Shown here piece after piece: positions 3,966 to 11,932 of a stretch of DNA of 64,000 nucleotides. Where the stretch lies: NCBI RefSeq assembly GCF_007752935.1, contig NZ_CP036319.1, positions 4,940,501 to 5,004,500 of the forward strand, in the 5' to 3' direction. The notes under the pieces are model-generated. The model saw nothing but the letters and a program-made list of their open reading frames with translations. It was not told the DNA's origin and searched no databases. Position 1 is the first letter of the stretch. Every line of letters starts with the position of its first letter. Source of the stretch: Crateriforma conspicua. GTDB taxonomy: Bacteria > Planctomycetota > Planctomycetia > Pirellulales > Pirellulaceae. A program made the translations under genes and the position numbers.

Positions 3966-5168
3966 CTAGACGGACGGTCCAGCCTTGGCGGCTTCGATTG
4001 CCTTTTCCAGCGACAGCTTGGCGTAGTGCTCGGTCATCGACGCTCGACTATGACCAAGCATTGCCTGTGCGGCTTCCACGCCCAACGCTTCGCGGATGAC
4101 CGTGCCAGCGGTATGCCGAAGTTGGTAGGGGAACCAATGGTCGGTCCCGGCCTTCTCTGCCGCTCGCTGAATCGCACGTCGGTAACTGTCCGCACCAAAG
4201 CAGGGTCTGTAGTTTCGCTCCTTGCGTGTTCCGTCCCTCGCCGTTTTGCCATAGCCCGGCCGGTCGCCCTGGTTCATCGGCGTTTTGCGGTTCGCACTTC
4301 GCTGGTCCCGGTGCCAGTCGGCCGACTCCTTCGGGGTGAAGCAGTATTTATCGTCCGGCCGGTCCAAAAACGGCTTTAGCGCCAACTTCGCATCGCCCAC
4401 CAGTGGCACCGCCTTGGTCTTGCCATGATGGGCGGTCTTGTGCGTCGGCGGTCGGTACACCCACACACCGTCCGGTCGCTTCTCGATGTCGGTCGGACGC
4501 ATCTTGCAGACTTCACTCGGACGCATCCCGGTTGCCGCCTGAATCCGCACCATTGCCTTGACAGTTGGCGATAGGTGTTTCGCCGTCAGTCTGACCGCTT
4601 CGATGTCGACCGGTTGCACGGGTTCGGATTCGCGGGCCTTGGTCTGACCCTGCTTCAGCGGTTCCAACGTTTGCAAGGCAACCAAGTATTCCGGCTTCAC
4701 AATCTCGCGGCTCACTCCGAATCGGAAGATTGAAACGATGCAACGGGTCTGCGTGTTGACGTACTTGCGACAGTTGCCGGACGCGACAAACAAGTCCCGA
4801 AGTTCGGCAAGCTTGCGGGGGCCGAAATTCTCGACAGGGTCGTCGCCGTATTCGTCTTCCAGGACGGAACACAGGCTTCCGTACCTCGACAGCTCGCCAG
4901 CGTTCTTGGCGTAGCGGACCTTGGCGTGTTCTCGAAACTCGGCCGTCAGGCATCGCACGGTTACCGGCTGGTCTGACTTGTGCGTTTCGACTTGTTCGGG
5001 CATCCGCTGGCCGTTGGCGTTGTACTCCGCCAATAGTGCGTAGTACTTGGCCCAGCTTTGCGGGCTTCCATGTTCGCCTAGATAGAAGTTGCGACCGTCC
5101 AGCGTGACGACTGCTTGGCCCGATACGTGGTAGCGATAACCGGGGGCCGTAGAACGTTTGCGTGGCAT
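3966..5168 (-). CDS. Tyrosine recombinase/integrase of the element
   Basis: A 400-residue site-specific recombinase. The catalytic domain holds Arg216 in TGMRPSEV, a candidate Lys at 244 or 250 in THKTAHHGK, Arg351 and His352 in YQLRHTAG, His373 in LGH, and the nucleophile Tyr382 in EHYAK. The first histidine of the usual HxxR box is Tyr348. The N-terminal part (about 65-170) is a SAM-like core-binding domain. The gene lies 137 bp beyond the 3' end of tRNA-Val and reads away from it, the usual layout for elements inserted into tRNA genes, so this enzyme probably carried out that insertion. ATG at 5168 gives the full domain set. Confidence 0.93.
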   Translation of the reverse strand: MPRKRSTAPGYRYHVSGQAVVTLDGRNFYLGEHGSPQSWAKYYALLAEYNANGQRMPEQVETHKSDQPVTVRCLTAEFREHAKVRYAKNAGELSRYGSLCSVLEDEYGDDPVENFGPRKLAELRDLFVASGNCRKYVNTQTRCIVSIFRFGVSREIVKPEYLVALQTLEPLKQGQTKARESEPVQPVDIEAVRLTAKHLSPTVKAMVRIQAATGMRPSEVCKMRPTDIEKRPDGVWVYRPPTHKTAHHGKTKAVPLVGDAKLALKPFLDRPDDKYCFTPKESADWHRDQRSANRKTPMNQGDRPGYGKTARDGTRKERNYRPCFGADSYRRAIQRAAEKAGTDHWFPYQLRHTAGTVIREALGVEAAQAMLGHSRASMTEHYAKLSLEKAIEAAKAGPSV

Positions 5169-5305: not shown

Positions 5306-5350
5306 TGGGCGATACAGAATTCGAATCTGTGACCTCTGCGGTGTGAACAC
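5306..5350. other. Probable attachment site at the tRNA-Val 3' end
   Basis: The intact tRNA-Val 3' half lies next to the integrase gene, so the recombination core is expected within the T-arm and acceptor or anticodon part of the tRNA. The matching direct repeat at the other end of the element should lie left of base 1 and is not in the window, so the limits given here are only approximate. Confidence 0.4.
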
Positions 5351-5379
5351 AGCGCTCTAACCAACTGAGCTAATCGCCC
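5306..5379 (-). tRNA. tRNA-Val (anticodon CAC)
   Basis: The 74-nt reverse-strand sequence folds as a full cloverleaf: acceptor GGGCGAT/ATCGCCC, D-arm GCTC/GAGC with loop AGTTGGTTA, anticodon stem CTGTG/CGCAG with loop TTCACAC (anticodon CAC, reading GTG valine), a five-base variable loop AGGTC, and T-arm ACAGA/TCTGT with loop TTCGAAT. The discriminator base is A and CCA is not encoded. It is the target site of the neighbouring integrative element. Confidence 0.95.
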
Positions 5380-6815: not shown

Positions 6816-8201
6816 ATGAAACCTCCGAACATTCGCAAACCAAAATCTGTCGGCCGCGGATTGACAGCAGCGTTAAACGCCCCATGCATTCGCCGCTACG
6901 TCACGTCTAGGTTTCAGCTGGCGATCGTTACCGTGTTGGTGATCTCGGTTTTCGGATCTGGCCACGCGCGAGCCGCCGACAAGATCGAGTTCGTCAACGG
7001 CACCGAGCTGGACGGAAAGATTTTGCAGATTCGCAAAGCCGACAAAGAATTCGACTTTGAGACAGACATCGGTGGCCGCACGATTTCCCGCACCTACCCG
7101 TACGACAAGGTCCACGCGGTCACATTTGGCGGCAAGCGGTTTGTGATCACGCCGAAAACTGCGGCAAGCACCGCATCGTCTTCGGCCAGCAGCGATCCAA
7201 ACCAACTGAACCGTTCGCGTGGCGAAGTCTTACAGATCATCGAACAAGCCGGCCGTCAGCCGCCCAGCTGGCTGGCATCGACGCCGATGAATCATCCTGC
7301 GTCGCTGGACCTTTCATGGCCGCTGAAGCCGGGGGGACCATGGAACGAATCAAAGAATGTGGGTCAGTACATTTGGGGACGAGTGAATCCGAACCCGGGA
7401 CGCTGGCGCAGCGGGATCAAGTTGGTCCATCAATGCATCGACCAACACAAGACAGACCCGAAGTTACTGAAACGTGATTTCGAGAAACTGGGGCAAATGT
7501 ATTTCGAGCTTTTGCAAGATTACCCACGCGCTGCCTATTACATGAAGCTGGCGGGGGCAGCGCCAGACAAGCAACTGGGCGTGCACTTGGCGGAATGCTA
7601 CTGGCGACTGGGCAACAAATCGATGGCCTTGCAAACGCTCGCCGGACGCAGCATTCATTTCGACGCGATCAAATTGCTGGGTGACATGGGGGAGGTCGAT
7701 CGAGCCGTTCGACTGACTGCCGCGTACGCCAACAGCAACTTCTTCAACGAGGCCTTCTTGAACGCTGGTGATGCCCTGCGAAACGCGGGTCGATACGACG
7801 AGGCAATTCAATACTACCAACGCATTTTGGATTTGGATCGCGCGCGAAATGCCGAATACAAGAAGCGTTATCACGGCCGCGCCCGCGACGCGATCCAGGC
7901 GATTCGGCTGTTCGACAAAGTCGATGTGACGAAGATTTCCGACGGCACCTACCAGGCAACCGCCACGGCCTACGCTGGCCCTCTGACCGTGGATGTCATC
8001 GTTGCCGACGCAAAAATCGAATCCGTGCAAGTCGTCAAACACAAAGACAAGCAATTCTATGCCGCACTGACCGACACACCGCGTCAAATCATCGAAAAGC
8101 AGACGGTCAAAGACATCGACGGGACCAGCGGTGCGACCATCACATCCCAGGCCATCATCACCGCCACCGCAATGGCACTGGGCAAAGGGTCCAATCAATG
8201 A
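6816..8201 (+). CDS. Secreted TPR protein with C-terminal FMN-binding domain
   Basis: A 461-residue protein. A hydrophobic export segment (FQLAIVTVLVISVFGSGHARA, about residues 33-53) follows a basic N-terminus. Residues about 215-365 hold TPR-like helical repeats (for example NAGDALRNAGRYDEAIQYYQRIL). The C-terminal 90 residues form an FMN-binding domain of the RnfG/NosR type, ending in DGTSGATITSQAI, where Thr441 of SGAT is the residue that ApbE-type transferases attach to FMN. This points to a periplasmic flavin electron carrier, fitting the membrane polyferredoxin two genes downstream. The stop overlaps the next ATG as ATGA. No clear ribosome binding site precedes the chosen start. Confidence 0.82.
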   Translation: MKPPNIRKPKSVGRGLTAALNAPCIRRYVTSRFQLAIVTVLVISVFGSGHARAADKIEFVNGTELDGKILQIRKADKEFDFETDIGGRTISRTYPYDKVHAVTFGGKRFVITPKTAASTASSSASSDPNQLNRSRGEVLQIIEQAGRQPPSWLASTPMNHPASLDLSWPLKPGGPWNESKNVGQYIWGRVNPNPGRWRSGIKLVHQCIDQHKTDPKLLKRDFEKLGQMYFELLQDYPRAAYYMKLAGAAPDKQLGVHLAECYWRLGNKSMALQTLAGRSIHFDAIKLLGDMGEVDRAVRLTAAYANSNFFNEAFLNAGDALRNAGRYDEAIQYYQRILDLDRARNAEYKKRYHGRARDAIQAIRLFDKVDVTKISDGTYQATATAYAGPLTVDVIVADAKIESVQVVKHKDKQFYAALTDTPRQIIEKQTVKDIDGTSGATITSQAIITATAMALGKGSNQ

Positions 8202-9271
8202 TTGTCGCGTCGCGTATCGCCCTGGCTGTCCTTGCTTCCGTATCCTTTTATCAATCGCTGTATGCCGGCGACCCGGTGGACGGAAGCTGGAACGACGGAC
8301 GGTTTCATTGGCACGTCGGCAAGCCCATCTTAAGTGTTGACCAGGATCGCCTACCGGACTTGCCGGATCATCGATGGGTGGCCGTCAAAGACCCCAGCGT
8401 GGTTCGTCACGACGGACACTGGCATTTGTTTTGTACGCTTCGCAACGACAAGAAGGGCGACGGCCGGATACGCATCGGCTATCTGAAATTTTCCCAGTGG
8501 GAACAGGCCAAGTCGTCCGAATGGTCCGTCCTGGATTTGACATTGGACTACCACGGCGCGCCGCAAATCTTCTATTTCCGCCCCGACCAAAAGTGGTATC
8601 TGATTTACCAGGCGGCGGATGAATCGCGCAACCTTCGCTACGGCCCCTGCTATTCGGTCAACGATGACATCAACAACCCGGCCGACTGGAGTCGTCCCGA
8701 GTCTTTGTACGTGGTCCCGGAGGGCGAGCAGGCCGGGTTGGATTTTTGGGTCATTTGCGACAACGATCATGCCTATCTGTTTTTCACTTCGCTGAACGGA
8801 AAATTGTGGCGATCACGAACCCGCTTGGATCAATTCCCCGACCGCGGGTGGTCCGAACCGGTGATCGCATTACAGGCCGACATCTATGAGGCCAGCCACA
8901 CGTATCACATCAAGGGTTTGGAAAAGTACGTGACCTTGGTCGAAGCTCAAGATGGAAAACGTCGCTACTTCAAGACGTTCATCGCCGACACACTGGACGG
9001 AACATGGCGGCCCTTGGCGGCTAGTCGCCAAAAGCCGTTCGTCGCCCCGAAGAACGTCATCAACCAATCGACATCTTGGGCGACGTCCTACAGCCATGGT
9101 GAATTCATTCGCGACGGCATCGACCAGCGACTGAGCATCTCGGATGACCGTTTGACGTTGCTGTTCCAGGGGGCTTCGGACACCGAATACCAGCGTGGTT
9201 CCTATGGCGACATTCCCTGGCGATTGGGATTACTGCGTCTGGCTGACGAACCATACGATGCACCGGAGTAA
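8198..9271 (+). CDS. Secreted GH62-like alpha-L-arabinofuranosidase
   Basis: A 357-residue protein with a signal peptide (MIVASRIALAVLASVSFYQS, cleavage near LYAG). The mature part follows the five-bladed propeller layout of glycoside hydrolase family 62: WVAVKDPSVVRHDGHWHLFCT near residues 60-80 contains the conserved KDPS acid, then GAPQIFYFRPDQKWYLIYQ and FEASH-like ADIYEASHTY further on. Such enzymes remove arabinose side chains from xylan. It starts inside the ATGA overlap with the FMN-binding gene, so it is translated from the same message, which is surprising given the redox neighbours. It could also belong to a related GH43-type clan member. Confidence 0.75.
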   Translation: MIVASRIALAVLASVSFYQSLYAGDPVDGSWNDGRFHWHVGKPILSVDQDRLPDLPDHRWVAVKDPSVVRHDGHWHLFCTLRNDKKGDGRIRIGYLKFSQWEQAKSSEWSVLDLTLDYHGAPQIFYFRPDQKWYLIYQAADESRNLRYGPCYSVNDDINNPADWSRPESLYVVPEGEQAGLDFWVICDNDHAYLFFTSLNGKLWRSRTRLDQFPDRGWSEPVIALQADIYEASHTYHIKGLEKYVTLVEAQDGKRRYFKTFIADTLDGTWRPLAASRQKPFVAPKNVINQSTSWATSYSHGEFIRDGIDQRLSISDDRLTLLFQGASDTEYQRGSYGDIPWRLGLLRLADEPYDAPE

Positions 9272-9352
9272 CGCCGAACGGCCGACGGACGGATCGGGTG
9301 CCTGATCACCGGCACAGCGCGCACACGAAACGAACCTCGACGACGATTCATC

Positions 9353-11932
9353 ATGACGGCTGGAAAAAAACGATTACTGGCCTTGGGGATCGCCATGGTT
9401 TGCACGGCGGCTTTGGCGGCCGGGGCCGGCCAATGGCATTGGACGTTCGGAACCCTTCGGCTGGATCCGATGGTCTTGGCTGCGTCGATCGTTGGGTTGG
9501 CCGCCAGCGCCTTGATATTGCTGTCCAGCTTTCGCAGTGACGACGGGTCCAAGGTGTTGATCCGTTTGGACTGGTTTTTGCCGATGCTGAGGCGGCCCAA
9601 GGCGGGCAAGGCGGTGTCGCCGTCTATCCTGGGCCGAACGATGCGGCGGGTGATGCCATCGACGTTGCAATCCGACTGGTCCACCAAACGCCGCGGCCCG
9701 GTTCGTCGCTGGCTTCGCCGACTGGGCCCCAGTTGGACGGCTGCTCCGGTGCGACGGCTTGTTCAAGGCACCTGCTTGGTCACTTTTTGGATTCTGTTTT
9801 TCTACGTTTGCTGGCCGTATGACGCTCGTCCGGCACTGGTCCAGCCCGCGTCGACCGGGTGGTTGTTGCAAACGGTTGACCAGCAATCGGGTGAAGTTCG
9901 GTTCCAGGGCGACGACTCGACGGACGCTTCCATCGAAGCGGGGGACTACTTTGTCATCGACACGGGCGTGACCGACGATGCAGCCGCGGATCTGGGACAG
10001 TTTCGCATCGACATGAACTCCGACGGGACGATTTCACTGAAGCCCAGCCAAACCAAGGCGGCGGGACAGTGGGACGCCTTTTTCTTTGGTACCGGCCCCT
10101 ATGACTTGTACGCGATGCGGCTGGGACAATGGCCCTCGCACTACGCCGACAATCTGCGAGGCAAGGAAAGATTACCGGCCGAGTTGTTTCTGATCATCGA
10201 TCCGCTGGTCAGCCTTTCGACGGCCGTCGCATCGCGAAGCCTTGTCTGGTCGCTGACTGCGGCGGGCGTGATTTTGATCGTTTGCGTTTTGATCCCGCGT
10301 GGTTTTTGCGGCTACCTGTGTCCATTGGGCACCACGATTGATCTGTTCGACTGGCTGGTGGCCGGGCGAGTTGGCCGCTTCCGCGTTCCCGATGACGGCT
10401 GGTGGGTTCACATCAAGTACTACCTATTGGCTGGAACCATGATCGCGGCGGTCGGCGGCGTGCTGGTCTCTGGCTTTTTTTCAGCGATCCCGGTGGTCAC
10501 TCGGGGCATGCTGTTCTTGCTGGATCCGGTGCAAACAGGCGCAACGCGAGGCTGGCATTTGATCCCGCCGATCAATGCGGGGCATATCGTTTCGCTGTTG
10601 TTGTTTGCAGCGGTGCTGTGCTTGGGTTTTTTGCGTCCCAGGTTTTGGTGCAAGTACGTATGCCCCAGCGGCGCGGTATTTAGCGTGGGCAACCTGCTGA
10701 GGGCGACCGAACGCAAAGTCGAATCCAGCTGCATTCACTGCAACAAGTGTGTGGAAATCTGCCCGTTTGACGCGATCAAACCGGACTTCACGACCCGCGG
10801 GACAGACTGCACGATGTGCCAGTCGTGTGGCGGTGTGTGCCCGACGCATGCGATTAAATTTGTCGAGCGGACCAACCTGGTCCAGCTGAAAACCTTTGAT
10901 GACCCACCGACAGGCGAAAGCTCGCTGGGGCGCCGCGGGTTCCTATCGGCCGTCGGTGGCGGTGCGGCCGCGGTGGTGGGTGGCGTCGGAGCGGTGGCGG
11001 CCACCAAAGCGTTCGGTGCCAAGCTGTCCGATGACGAATCGTTTCGCCCCGTACGACCGCCCGGCAGTGTCCCCGAGCAAGAATTCTTGCAGATGTGCAT
11101 CCGCTGTGGTGAGTGCTTCAAGGCTTGCCCCAACAACGTGCTGCAGCCGGAGGGATTCCAGCAAGGCTTGGAAGGACTGTGGACGCCGATGGTCCAGGCC
11201 GACTGGGCCGGATGCGAATCCAGTTGCAACGCGTGCGGCCAGGTTTGCCCGACGGGTGCGATTCGGGCGCTGCCCATCGAAGAAAAGCGGCACGCGCGGA
11301 TGGGGCTGGCGATTCTGAATGAATCCACCTGTCTGCCGCTGGCGGGCAAGGAGGATTGCGACCTGTGTGTCCAGGAATGTCAGGCAGCCGGGTATCACGC
11401 CATCGAATACACCCAGGTCGGTGTTCAAACCGACGAAAGCGGGATGCCGATCGAAGGGACGGGATTCCTGGCCCCGCTGGTCATCGACGACGCTTGCGTG
11501 GGTTGCGGGCTTTGCCAGACACGTTGCTATGCCATCAACGTCAAGGATCGCGGCGTCCTGGATGAATCGGCCATTGTTGTTGTCGCCGGCGGGGACCGAG
11601 AAGACCGGCTGATGGAAGGCTCCTACCGCGAACTGCACGAACAACGCACCGGCGGGGCCGCCAAGGATCCGACGCCGACCGGCCATGGCACGCGATCGCA
11701 GACGGCCGCCCCGAAGGGTGGCGGCGCGTCTGGCACGGCCCGCAGCGATTCACAGGACCCCTTCGGACTGGGTGGCGATGCCGATCCGTTCGGCCTGGGC
11801 GAATCGGTCGGCAGCGAATCCACCACACCGGACGCCCACCCCGCCAAAAACACTGATGATCTGGATCCTTTCGGAATCGGCATCGAAACGGATGCTGGGC
11901 AAACGCCAAGCGACGACGACAGCCCGTTCTGA
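9353..11932 (+). CDS. Membrane polyferredoxin, NapH/NosR-like fused to a NapG/MauM-like ferredoxin
   Basis: An 859-residue protein. The N-terminal half has several membrane segments (about 8-25, 40-58, 140-155, 295-315, 360-385, 415-430) and the paired CPLG (near 322) and CPSG (near 437) boxes of the NapH/NosR/CcoG fold, then two 4Fe-4S motifs CIHCNKC and CTMCQSC (about 460-495). A twin-arginine-like segment LGRRGFLSAVGGG (about 525) follows, then further cysteine clusters CIRCGEC (582), CESSCNACGQVC (620), CDLCVQEC (669) and CVGCGLCQTRC (715), as in NapG/MauM. The tail has repeated DPFG motifs. It should pass electrons across the membrane, probably to the FMN-binding protein of the same operon. 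Confidence 0.85.
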   Translation: MTAGKKRLLALGIAMVCTAALAAGAGQWHWTFGTLRLDPMVLAASIVGLAASALILLSSFRSDDGSKVLIRLDWFLPMLRRPKAGKAVSPSILGRTMRRVMPSTLQSDWSTKRRGPVRRWLRRLGPSWTAAPVRRLVQGTCLVTFWILFFYVCWPYDARPALVQPASTGWLLQTVDQQSGEVRFQGDDSTDASIEAGDYFVIDTGVTDDAAADLGQFRIDMNSDGTISLKPSQTKAAGQWDAFFFGTGPYDLYAMRLGQWPSHYADNLRGKERLPAELFLIIDPLVSLSTAVASRSLVWSLTAAGVILIVCVLIPRGFCGYLCPLGTTIDLFDWLVAGRVGRFRVPDDGWWVHIKYYLLAGTMIAAVGGVLVSGFFSAIPVVTRGMLFLLDPVQTGATRGWHLIPPINAGHIVSLLLFAAVLCLGFLRPRFWCKYVCPSGAVFSVGNLLRATERKVESSCIHCNKCVEICPFDAIKPDFTTRGTDCTMCQSCGGVCPTHAIKFVERTNLVQLKTFDDPPTGESSLGRRGFLSAVGGGAAAVVGGVGAVAATKAFGAKLSDDESFRPVRPPGSVPEQEFLQMCIRCGECFKACPNNVLQPEGFQQGLEGLWTPMVQADWAGCESSCNACGQVCPTGAIRALPIEEKRHARMGLAILNESTCLPLAGKEDCDLCVQECQAAGYHAIEYTQVGVQTDESGMPIEGTGFLAPLVIDDACVGCGLCQTRCYAINVKDRGVLDESAIVVVAGGDREDRLMEGSYRELHEQRTGGAAKDPTPTGHGTRSQTAAPKGGGASGTARSDSQDPFGLGGDADPFGLGESVGSESTTPDAHPAKNTDDLDPFGIGIETDAGQTPSDDDSPF

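What the first reader, a model, noticed from the sequence alone, without database searches (positions are those of the whole stretch)
6816..11932. Candidate extracytoplasmic flavin/polyferredoxin electron transfer system
A secreted protein with a covalent-FMN motif (SGAT, Thr441) and TPR repeats is encoded with a NapH/NosR-like polyferredoxin. By analogy with Rnf, Nqr and NosR, the pair could carry electrons from the cytoplasm or quinones to the outside of the inner membrane. The TPR-FMN fusion and the lack of a known terminal reductase nearby are unusual.
Basis: partly seen in the sequence, partly recalled or inferred. Interest (0 to 1): 0.62.

Follow-up and report, generated by a model that had tools for sequence, protein, structure and literature searches.

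The report
Flavin-and-iron–sulfur electron export module
Two neighbouring genes encode a membrane iron–sulfur "wire" and a secreted protein that probably carries a covalently attached flavin; the pair is usually kept together in planctomycetes and verrucomicrobia and most likely moves electrons out across the inner membrane to a partner that is still unknown.

Summary
ORF 6816-8201 has a signal-like N-terminus, a TPR domain and an FMN_bind domain (model pLDDT 93; FMN domain like 8p2b). Thr441 is invariant in 68 of 68 aligned sequences. ORF 9353-11932 is a NapH-NapG fusion with an invariant twin-arginine before the last helix: the dual Sec/Tat polyferredoxin type of Tooke 2017, not a NosR. Both stated refutations fail: the genome has two ApbE genes, and the pair is adjacent in 70 of 80 related loci (4 cut by contig ends, 6 without). 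No terminal reductase is shared by the neighbourhoods. 27 of 80 loci carry their own ApbE just upstream.

Best reading: a NapH-like flavinylated electron conduit, a class described by Meheust 2021, in a new form. Least expected: most loci with their own ApbE have the motif glycine (D-x-x-[ST]-G-A-T) replaced by Arg, Asn, Lys, His or Asp (24 of 27, against 3 of 54 without). In four related genomes of that kind the other FMN_bind sites keep glycine. This hints at dedicated ApbE-substrate pairs, but the pattern is clade-structured and untested by enough independent cases. The window's own copy has the ordinary motif.

The parts
6816..8201 (+). FMN-TPR gene: signal-like N-terminus, beta domain, TPR domain, C-terminal FMN_bind domain (461 aa)
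6816..6971 (+). probable signal peptide, residues 1-52 (cleavage near ARA|AD inferred by eye; start codon uncertain)
   Evidence: sequence, (D55 invariant)
6978..7145 (+). small N-terminal beta domain, residues about 55-110
   Evidence: structure model
7359..7913 (+). TPR helical domain, residues about 182-366
   Evidence: Pfam; model; fold matches
7938..8189 (+). FMN_bind domain, residues about 375-458; fold matches solved FMN domains 8p2b (Z 14.1, rmsd 1.4, 81 aligned) and 8p2a (Z 12.7, rmsd 1.6, 83 aligned)
8118..8138 (+). flavinylation motif D-G-T-S-G-A-T (residues 435-441), Thr441 predicted to bear FMN
   Evidence: motif definition PMC12052999 (passage)
8198..9271 (+). GH62 glycosidase gene between the two (357 aa, signal-like N-terminus by eye)
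   Evidence: overlap
9353..11932 (+). NapH-NapG fusion polyferredoxin (859 aa)
9746..10861 (+). NapH part, residues about 132-503: helices with two CX3CP motifs (C319/C323, C433/C437) and two [4Fe-4S] motifs placed in the cytoplasm
   Evidence: sidedness inferred from NapH as described in PMC5449189 (passage)
10931..11011 (+). twin-arginine RR527-528 and low-hydrophobicity last helix (residues 527-553), the likely Tat-dependent segment
   Evidence: RR in 59 of 59; relatives' helices
11075..11548 (+). NapG part, residues about 575-732, four [4Fe-4S] motifs, placed outside the membrane by inference

Best explanation
A two-protein electron conduit across the inner membrane. The NapH part of the polyferredoxin takes electrons, most likely from quinol, and passes them through its iron-sulfur clusters to the NapG part, which lies outside the membrane after Tat translocation. 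NapG reduces the FMN that ApbE has linked to Thr441 of the secreted FMN-TPR protein. The TPR domain then docks one or more periplasmic client enzymes that take the electrons. Shown here: the domains, the conserved motifs, the predicted folds, adjacency of the two genes in most loci, ApbE in every genome checked, and frequent linkage to ApbE. Inferred: flavinylation, electron flow, quinol as donor, sidedness, and the role of the TPR. The client is unknown; a link to polysaccharide breakdown is a weak hint from the GH62 gene.
For: Pfam and NCBIfam domains. Pair adjacent in 13 of 14 order-level genomes, the other cut off, and in 70 of 80 collection loci; the genes overlap by 4 bases in 28 of 69 measured junctions, window included. 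ApbE directly upstream in 27 of 80. Thr441 invariant 68 of 68; RR and 20 of the 28 cluster/CX3CP Cys invariant 59 of 59, the other eight in the 58 rows that have those columns. FMN domain fold like 8p2b and 8p2a. ApbE in the own genome, in 33 of 33 relatives and in 8 of 8 genomes behind collection loci. NapGH as a quinol dehydrogenase and NapH-NapG fusions as dual Sec/Tat proteins are stated in passages of PMC5449189. NapH-like flavinylated clusters are described in passages of PMC8238504.
Against: No terminal enzyme is conserved near it, so neither the acceptor nor the direction is supported by context. Six of 80 loci have the FMN-TPR gene with room but without the polyferredoxin nearby. The gene is sporadic: 14 of 196 genomes drawn from the order, 15 of 343 from the phylum (at most 8 and 5 candidates per genome were scored, so these may be undercounts). 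The motif glycine is lost in 31 of 68 aligned sequences. No flavinylation or redox data exist.
Confidence: 0.62

Rival explanations
1. Same parts, opposite direction: a secreted dehydrogenase reduces the FMN-TPR protein, and the polyferredoxin feeds those electrons into the quinone pool.
For: Meheust 2021 (passages) found NapH-like flavinylated clusters with an alcohol oxidase as well as with a nitrite reductase, so this apparatus may run either way.
Against: No conserved secreted dehydrogenase in the neighbourhoods. GH62 is a hydrolase family, not a redox one. NapGH forms a quinol dehydrogenase complex (PMC5449189, passage).
Confidence: 0.2
2. A redox helper for maturation: electrons keep metal centres or cysteines of exported enzymes reduced during assembly, with the TPR domain as a platform.
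For: TPR fold; no fixed terminal reductase; variable neighbours.
Against: No client gene is conserved nearby. No direct evidence.
Confidence: 0.12
3. The FMN site is dead: the TPR protein works only as a scaffold and is not flavinylated.
For: The motif glycine is lost in 31 of 68 aligned sequences.
Against: Thr441 and Ala440 are invariant 68 of 68, and an ApbE gene sits just upstream in 27 of 80 loci, mostly where the glycine is lost. A dead site would hardly keep its own ApbE.
Confidence: 0.05

Closest known systems
NapH-like flavinylated gene clusters (Meheust et al. 2021, PMC8238504; passages and one methods section read)
   Same: Fer4_5 (PF12801) membrane iron-sulfur protein next to an FMN-binding gene; 539 such two-gene clusters were counted there, reactions of most NapH-like systems unknown.
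   Different: Here the NapH protein is fused to NapG and the FMN protein carries a TPR domain; the terms planctomycet, tetratricopeptide and TPR have no hit in that paper's main text. Its supplementary tables were not open to me, so some of these loci may be listed there.
Polytopic polyferredoxin (PFD), a NapH-NapG fusion (Tooke et al. 2017, PMC5449189; passages read)
   Same: NapH-NapG fusion; twin-arginine directly before a weakly hydrophobic last helix; four clusters outside.
   Different: No FMN partner appears in the passages read. The window's copy and some relatives have two extra N-terminal helices. No direct comparison with Q1NSB0 was made.
NosR / PceC
   Same: A covalent FMN and a NapH-type polyferredoxin serving a periplasmic enzyme (recalled; the flavinylated Nos and Pce systems are mentioned).
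   Different: There FMN and polyferredoxin are one polypeptide tied to NosZ or PceA (recalled); here they are two proteins and no such enzyme was found nearby.
FMN domains CbFMN4 d1 and SaFMN3 d2 (structures 8p2b, 8p2a; probably those of PMC10339131, whose abstract start was seen in a search listing)
   Same: Same FMN domain fold (Z 14.1 and 12.7).
   Different: Those proteins carry three or four covalent flavins; here there is a single FMN domain behind a TPR domain.

Membership tests
FMN_bind (PF04205), ApbE-flavinylated proteins | Profile match over the curated cut-off | tested here: met
   42.6 bits against 22
FMN_bind (PF04205), ApbE-flavinylated proteins | Motif D-x-x-[ST]-G-A-[ST] with the acceptor Thr/Ser | tested here: met
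   DGTSGAT in the window's protein, Thr441 invariant 68 of 68; motif as in PMC12052999 section 8 (passage)
FMN_bind (PF04205), ApbE-flavinylated proteins | FMN covalently bound | not testable with these tools
   needs mass spectrometry
[quoted passage not shown]
NapH-like flavinylated system (Meheust 2021) | FMN protein outside the cytosol | tested here: inconclusive
   signal-like N-terminus read by eye; no signal-peptide program run
Dual Sec/Tat polyferredoxin (Tooke 2017) | NapH-NapG fusion | tested here: met
   NapH match 280-508 and NapG match 525-727 in one ORF (below the models' own curated cut-offs)
Dual Sec/Tat polyferredoxin (Tooke 2017) | Conserved twin-arginine directly before the last helix | tested here: met
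   R527-R528 in 59 of 59 rows, helix 527-553
Dual Sec/Tat polyferredoxin (Tooke 2017) | Three clusters inside, four outside; sequence relation to Q1NSB0 | tested here: inconclusive
   two Fer4 motifs plus two CX3CP motifs in the NapH part and four motifs in the NapG part; Q1NSB0 not compared
Dual Sec/Tat polyferredoxin (Tooke 2017) | Tat-dependent translocation | not testable with these tools
   needs reporter fusions
NosR | FMN domain in the same polypeptide as the polyferredoxin | tested here: not met
   no FMN_bind match at E 0.001 in the 859-aa protein
Rnf / Nqr complexes | NqrB/RnfD-type (PF03116) and other pump subunits encoded alongside | tested here: not met
   no PF03116 match among the six window genes scanned around the locus; a PF03116 gene of this genome lies in L037, at about 3.68 Mb
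GH62 (PF03664), the in-between gene | Profile over cut-off and similarity to solved GH62 enzymes | tested here: met
   123.8 bits against 22.1; 5b6s E 2.7e-60; activity not tested

The most novel reading that the evidence does not exclude
Many of these loci hold a dedicated flavin transferase with changed target specificity. The cassette ApbE forms its own subfamily (signature TLNG-x-AQG) and flavinylates sites of the form D-x-x-S-[R/N/K/H/D]-A-T, in which the glycine normal for ApbE targets is replaced; the same genomes keep other ApbEs and, where other FMN_bind sites were found, these keep the glycine. These would be natural, mutually insulated ApbE-substrate pairs.
Probability: 0.4. Interest if true: 0.66.

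Novelty: new variant of a known kind. Interest (0 to 1): 0.5.

Why it matters
It gives a NapH-NapG fusion polyferredoxin a likely direct partner, a flavinylated TPR protein, in Planctomycetota and Verrucomicrobiota, whose periplasmic redox chemistry is poorly known. The TPR domain offers a way to fish out the missing client. If the ApbE/motif pairing is real, the accepted flavinylation motif would be too narrow: a strict [ST]GA[ST] search would miss 31 of the 68 sequences aligned here, and new insulated flavin-tag pairs might become available for protein labelling.

Tried and rejected
A conserved terminal reductase was sought by clustering ORFs of 80 loci plus the window and by Pfam scans of 20 neighbours in order-level loci. 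Beyond the FMN gene, the polyferredoxin and ApbE, the commonest clusters were a DUF1501-like family (11 loci; named by eye) and a sulfatase-like family (10 loci; sulfatases were found by Pfam beside three order-level loci). DUF1501 is a large family: 30 matches in the own genome, 29 over cut-off. At that density about 2.4 genes would be expected in the 589 kb of flanks, against 11 loci seen. So DUF1501 may be enriched; but the density of the other genomes was not measured, some of the 11 are near-copies (L118/L119), and position and orientation vary. I leave it open rather than call it a partner.

Foldseek of the polyferredoxin model against the PDB gave no match at E 0.001 (best E 0.083). Sequence hits in the PDB were ferredoxin-type domains.

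GH62 as an obligate part was rejected. In the 80 collection loci it is next to the FMN gene in 4 (L040, L041, L044, L101) and about 5 kb away in a fifth (L093); in the order-level set it is in 3 of 13 (window, L023, L026), and L026 is the same record as L044. A related GH62 exists in G137, where FMN-TPR was not found. It is hardly a random neighbour either: one copy where present, and directly downstream of FMN-TPR in 5 of the 8 genomes that have both. Those genomes were partly chosen because the adjacency was already known, so this is no unbiased rate.

The motif/ApbE association is not established once relatedness is considered. In the joint tree (67 rows) 5 independent pairs on starred branches gave 2-3 agreeing, 0 disagreeing and the rest tied; sign test p 0.25-0.5, too few to decide. 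I had left out L061, L116 and L150 from that tree (two long branches, one doubled module); L061 (His, no ApbE) and one copy of L150 (Ala, with ApbE) are counter-examples. An earlier tree of 66 polyferredoxins, which kept L061, gave 4 pairs, mean 2.9 agreeing and 0.2 disagreeing, median p 0.25. Counter-examples in all: a bulky residue without adjacent ApbE in L061, L075, L076 and L152 (Gln); ApbE-linked copies with small residues in L082, L092, L094 and in later phylum loci L135 (Gly), L151 (Ser), L150 (Ala), L146 (Ser).

The K-to-Q signature of the cassette ApbEs is weaker than it looks: the solved ApbEs 5mgy and 2o18 have Ala and Glu at that place, so the position varies in other ApbEs too.
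Full report
What is there. The window lies in a single-contig genome of 7,182,433 bases. The FMN gene (6816-8201), a GH62 gene (8198-9271) and the polyferredoxin gene (9353-11932) run in one direction. Pfam finds FMN_bind and TPR in the first, Glyco_hydro_62 in the second, and Fer4/Fer4_5 families in the third. NCBIfam relates the third to NapH (280-508) and to NapG/MauM (525-727), below those models' own cut-offs. Upstream and divergent lies a DUF3179 gene, downstream and convergent a DUF2752 gene.

The FMN-TPR protein. AlphaFold2 with an alignment of 68 sequences gave pLDDT 93.3 and pTM 0.80: a small beta domain, a TPR-type helical domain and a C-terminal FMN domain. The FMN domain matches the solved domains CbFMN4 d1 (8p2b, Z 14.1, rmsd 1.4, 81 aligned) and SaFMN3 d2 (8p2a, Z 12.7, rmsd 1.6, 83 aligned). 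In the 68 sequences Thr441, Ala440 and Thr443 are invariant and Asp435 is Asp in 66, Glu in 2, so the motif is real.

The polyferredoxin. The model has pLDDT 82.6 and pTM 0.81, with a low-confidence tail from residue 775. In 59 aligned sequences R527-R528 and the four CX3CP cysteines are invariant, and so are the cluster cysteines apart from a gap in one row. A pattern RR-x-x-L followed by RPPG was found in 51 of 64 longer ORFs, with mean Kyte-Doolittle hydropathy of the following helix 0.93-2.00, mostly 1.0-1.6; the other 13 did not fit the exact pattern, but RR stands in all 59 aligned rows. Tooke et al. 2017 (PMC5449189, passages) describe a NapH-NapG fusion of this kind, with a twin-arginine before a weakly hydrophobic fifth helix, as needing both Sec and Tat.

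Conservation. Order-level search: 14 of 196 genomes have FMN-TPR; in the 13 with enough contig (window included) the polyferredoxin is next to it. Public genome collection: 100 stretches encode a relative, the best 80 were kept, mostly Planctomycetota and Verrucomicrobiota by record title (MAG labels can be wrong). Polyferredoxin adjacent: 70 of 80 (in L090 the order is reversed). Four have the contig end too close (L062, L076, L085, L099); six have room but no polyferredoxin (L040, L066, L067, L075, L084, L115). The two genes overlap by 4 bases in 28 of 69 measured junctions, window included. ApbE lies directly upstream in 27 of 80; five of the others have under 700 bases upstream. A phylum-wide search found 15 of 343 genomes; some have doubled genes or modules, such as L146 and L150. 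Every genome searched for ApbE has it: own, 33 of 33 relatives, 8 of 8 others.

Partners. Clustering of ORFs in 81 loci found little else common: FMN gene 81, polyferredoxin 69, ApbE 26, next cluster 11 (ORF-based counts, slightly below the tblastn counts). GH62 was present in 6 of 81, one of them some 5 kb away. In a distant family of the phylum, G335 reads ApbE-FMN-FMN-GH62-propeller-polyferredoxin (L146) and G305 FMN-GH62-propeller-polyferredoxin (L147) (the propeller named by eye). GH62 is single copy in 12 of 37 genomes searched. A tree of 16 GH62 proteins separates six free-standing ones from the ten others with full support; the ten are eight adjacent, one 5 kb away and one in a genome where the module was not found. 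A functional link is possible but not needed.

The motif/ApbE pattern. ApbE targets are described as D-x-x-[ST]-G-A-[ST], and changing the glycine to alanine in one target gave a lower degree of flavinylation, about 50% (PMC12052999 section 8, passage). In this family the glycine is kept in 37 of 68 sequences; others have Arg 16, Ser 6, Asn 5, His 2, Lys 1, Asp 1. Across 81 loci a bulky residue occurs in 24 of 27 with adjacent ApbE and 3 of 54 without (Fisher p 3e-14, not corrected for relatedness). In the joint-tree set (67 rows, L061, L116 and L150 left out) none of 42 rows without ApbE has R/N/K/H/D/Q there and 21 of 25 with ApbE do (L146 is labelled F by a pattern slip, its residue is Ser). 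That set omits the exceptions L061 (dropped by me) and L075, L076 and L152 (no polyferredoxin ORF found). The tree-corrected test has too few independent pairs: 2-3 for, 0 against, the rest tied. Internal control: in four genomes with the SRAT cassette (G531-G534, related Verrucomicrobiota by record title) all eight other FMN_bind hits, on five ORFs, carry Gly (SGAT or TGAT, though the Asp before them is sometimes replaced). Two further cassette genomes (G535, G536) have no other FMN_bind hit. The cassette ApbEs read TLNG[IVLM]AQG in 26 of 26 readable, whereas seven other ApbEs (two of the own genome, five of 12 fetched) have Lys in place of that Gln; two solved ApbEs have Ala and Glu there, so this place is variable. 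Cassette ApbEs paired with Arg, Lys or His have Asp before the [TAC]GE stretch in 17 of 17 readable, and those paired with Asn have Asn in 5 of 5 (strongly clade-linked; of the other four, Asp-motif L107 and Ser-motif L092 have Asn, Ser-motif L082 and Gly-motif L094 have Asp). Loci found later show ApbE-linked copies with small residues. The window's copy is ordinary in this respect: Gly439 and no adjacent ApbE.

How it most likely works. Quinol to NapH, then the cytoplasm-facing clusters, the NapG clusters outside, the FMN on Thr441 and finally a TPR-docked client. Anatomy, conservation and ApbE supply are shown; the flow, its direction, the donor and the client are inferred.

Known or new. 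The broad class (NapH-like plus flavinylated partner) and the fused polyferredoxin are both in print. Their combination with a TPR-FMN protein and a linked ApbE was not seen in the listings of the paper searches (open-licence PMC library, capped lists), nor in the passages read of PMC8238504; the main text of PMC11334425 holds none of the six terms tried. I therefore file it as a new variant of a known kind.

Noticed in passing
window 3966-5168 and 5306-5379: A phage-integrase-family gene lies next to a tRNA-Val (CAC); the genes to its left look like replication genes of an integrated element (by eye). The FMN locus is on the other side of the tRNA.
   Followed up: partly
L038:7089-11095 (G000 at about 51-55 kb): A second flavinylated system in the same genome: a 581-aa protein with FMN_bind and Fer4_5 (two FMN_bind hits) next to an FAD_oxidored/Golvesin_C protein.
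   Followed up: no
L035:12100-13440: One ApbE of this genome carries an NqrM-like C-terminal stretch and lies near an FMN_bind protein, suggesting an Nqr-linked ApbE.
   Followed up: no
L112, L146, L150: Tandem copies of the FMN-TPR gene (L112, L146) or of the module (L150) in single loci.
   Followed up: partly
L046, L050, L066, L077, L078, L088, L092, L095, L099, L118, L119: A DUF1501-like gene (named by eye) occurs in 11 of 81 loci; about 2.4 genes would be expected at the own genome's density, so it may be enriched, in varying position and orientation.
   Followed up: partly
L146:5042-6215 and L147:2594-3641: A secreted-looking beta-propeller-like protein (repeats of GPDGN-[IL]-W, by eye) sits between GH62 and the polyferredoxin in a distant family.
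   Followed up: no
window 9353-9535 (first two helices) and rows L030-L033: The two N-terminal helices of the polyferredoxin are missing in several relatives, so they are dispensable for the conserved core.
   Followed up: no
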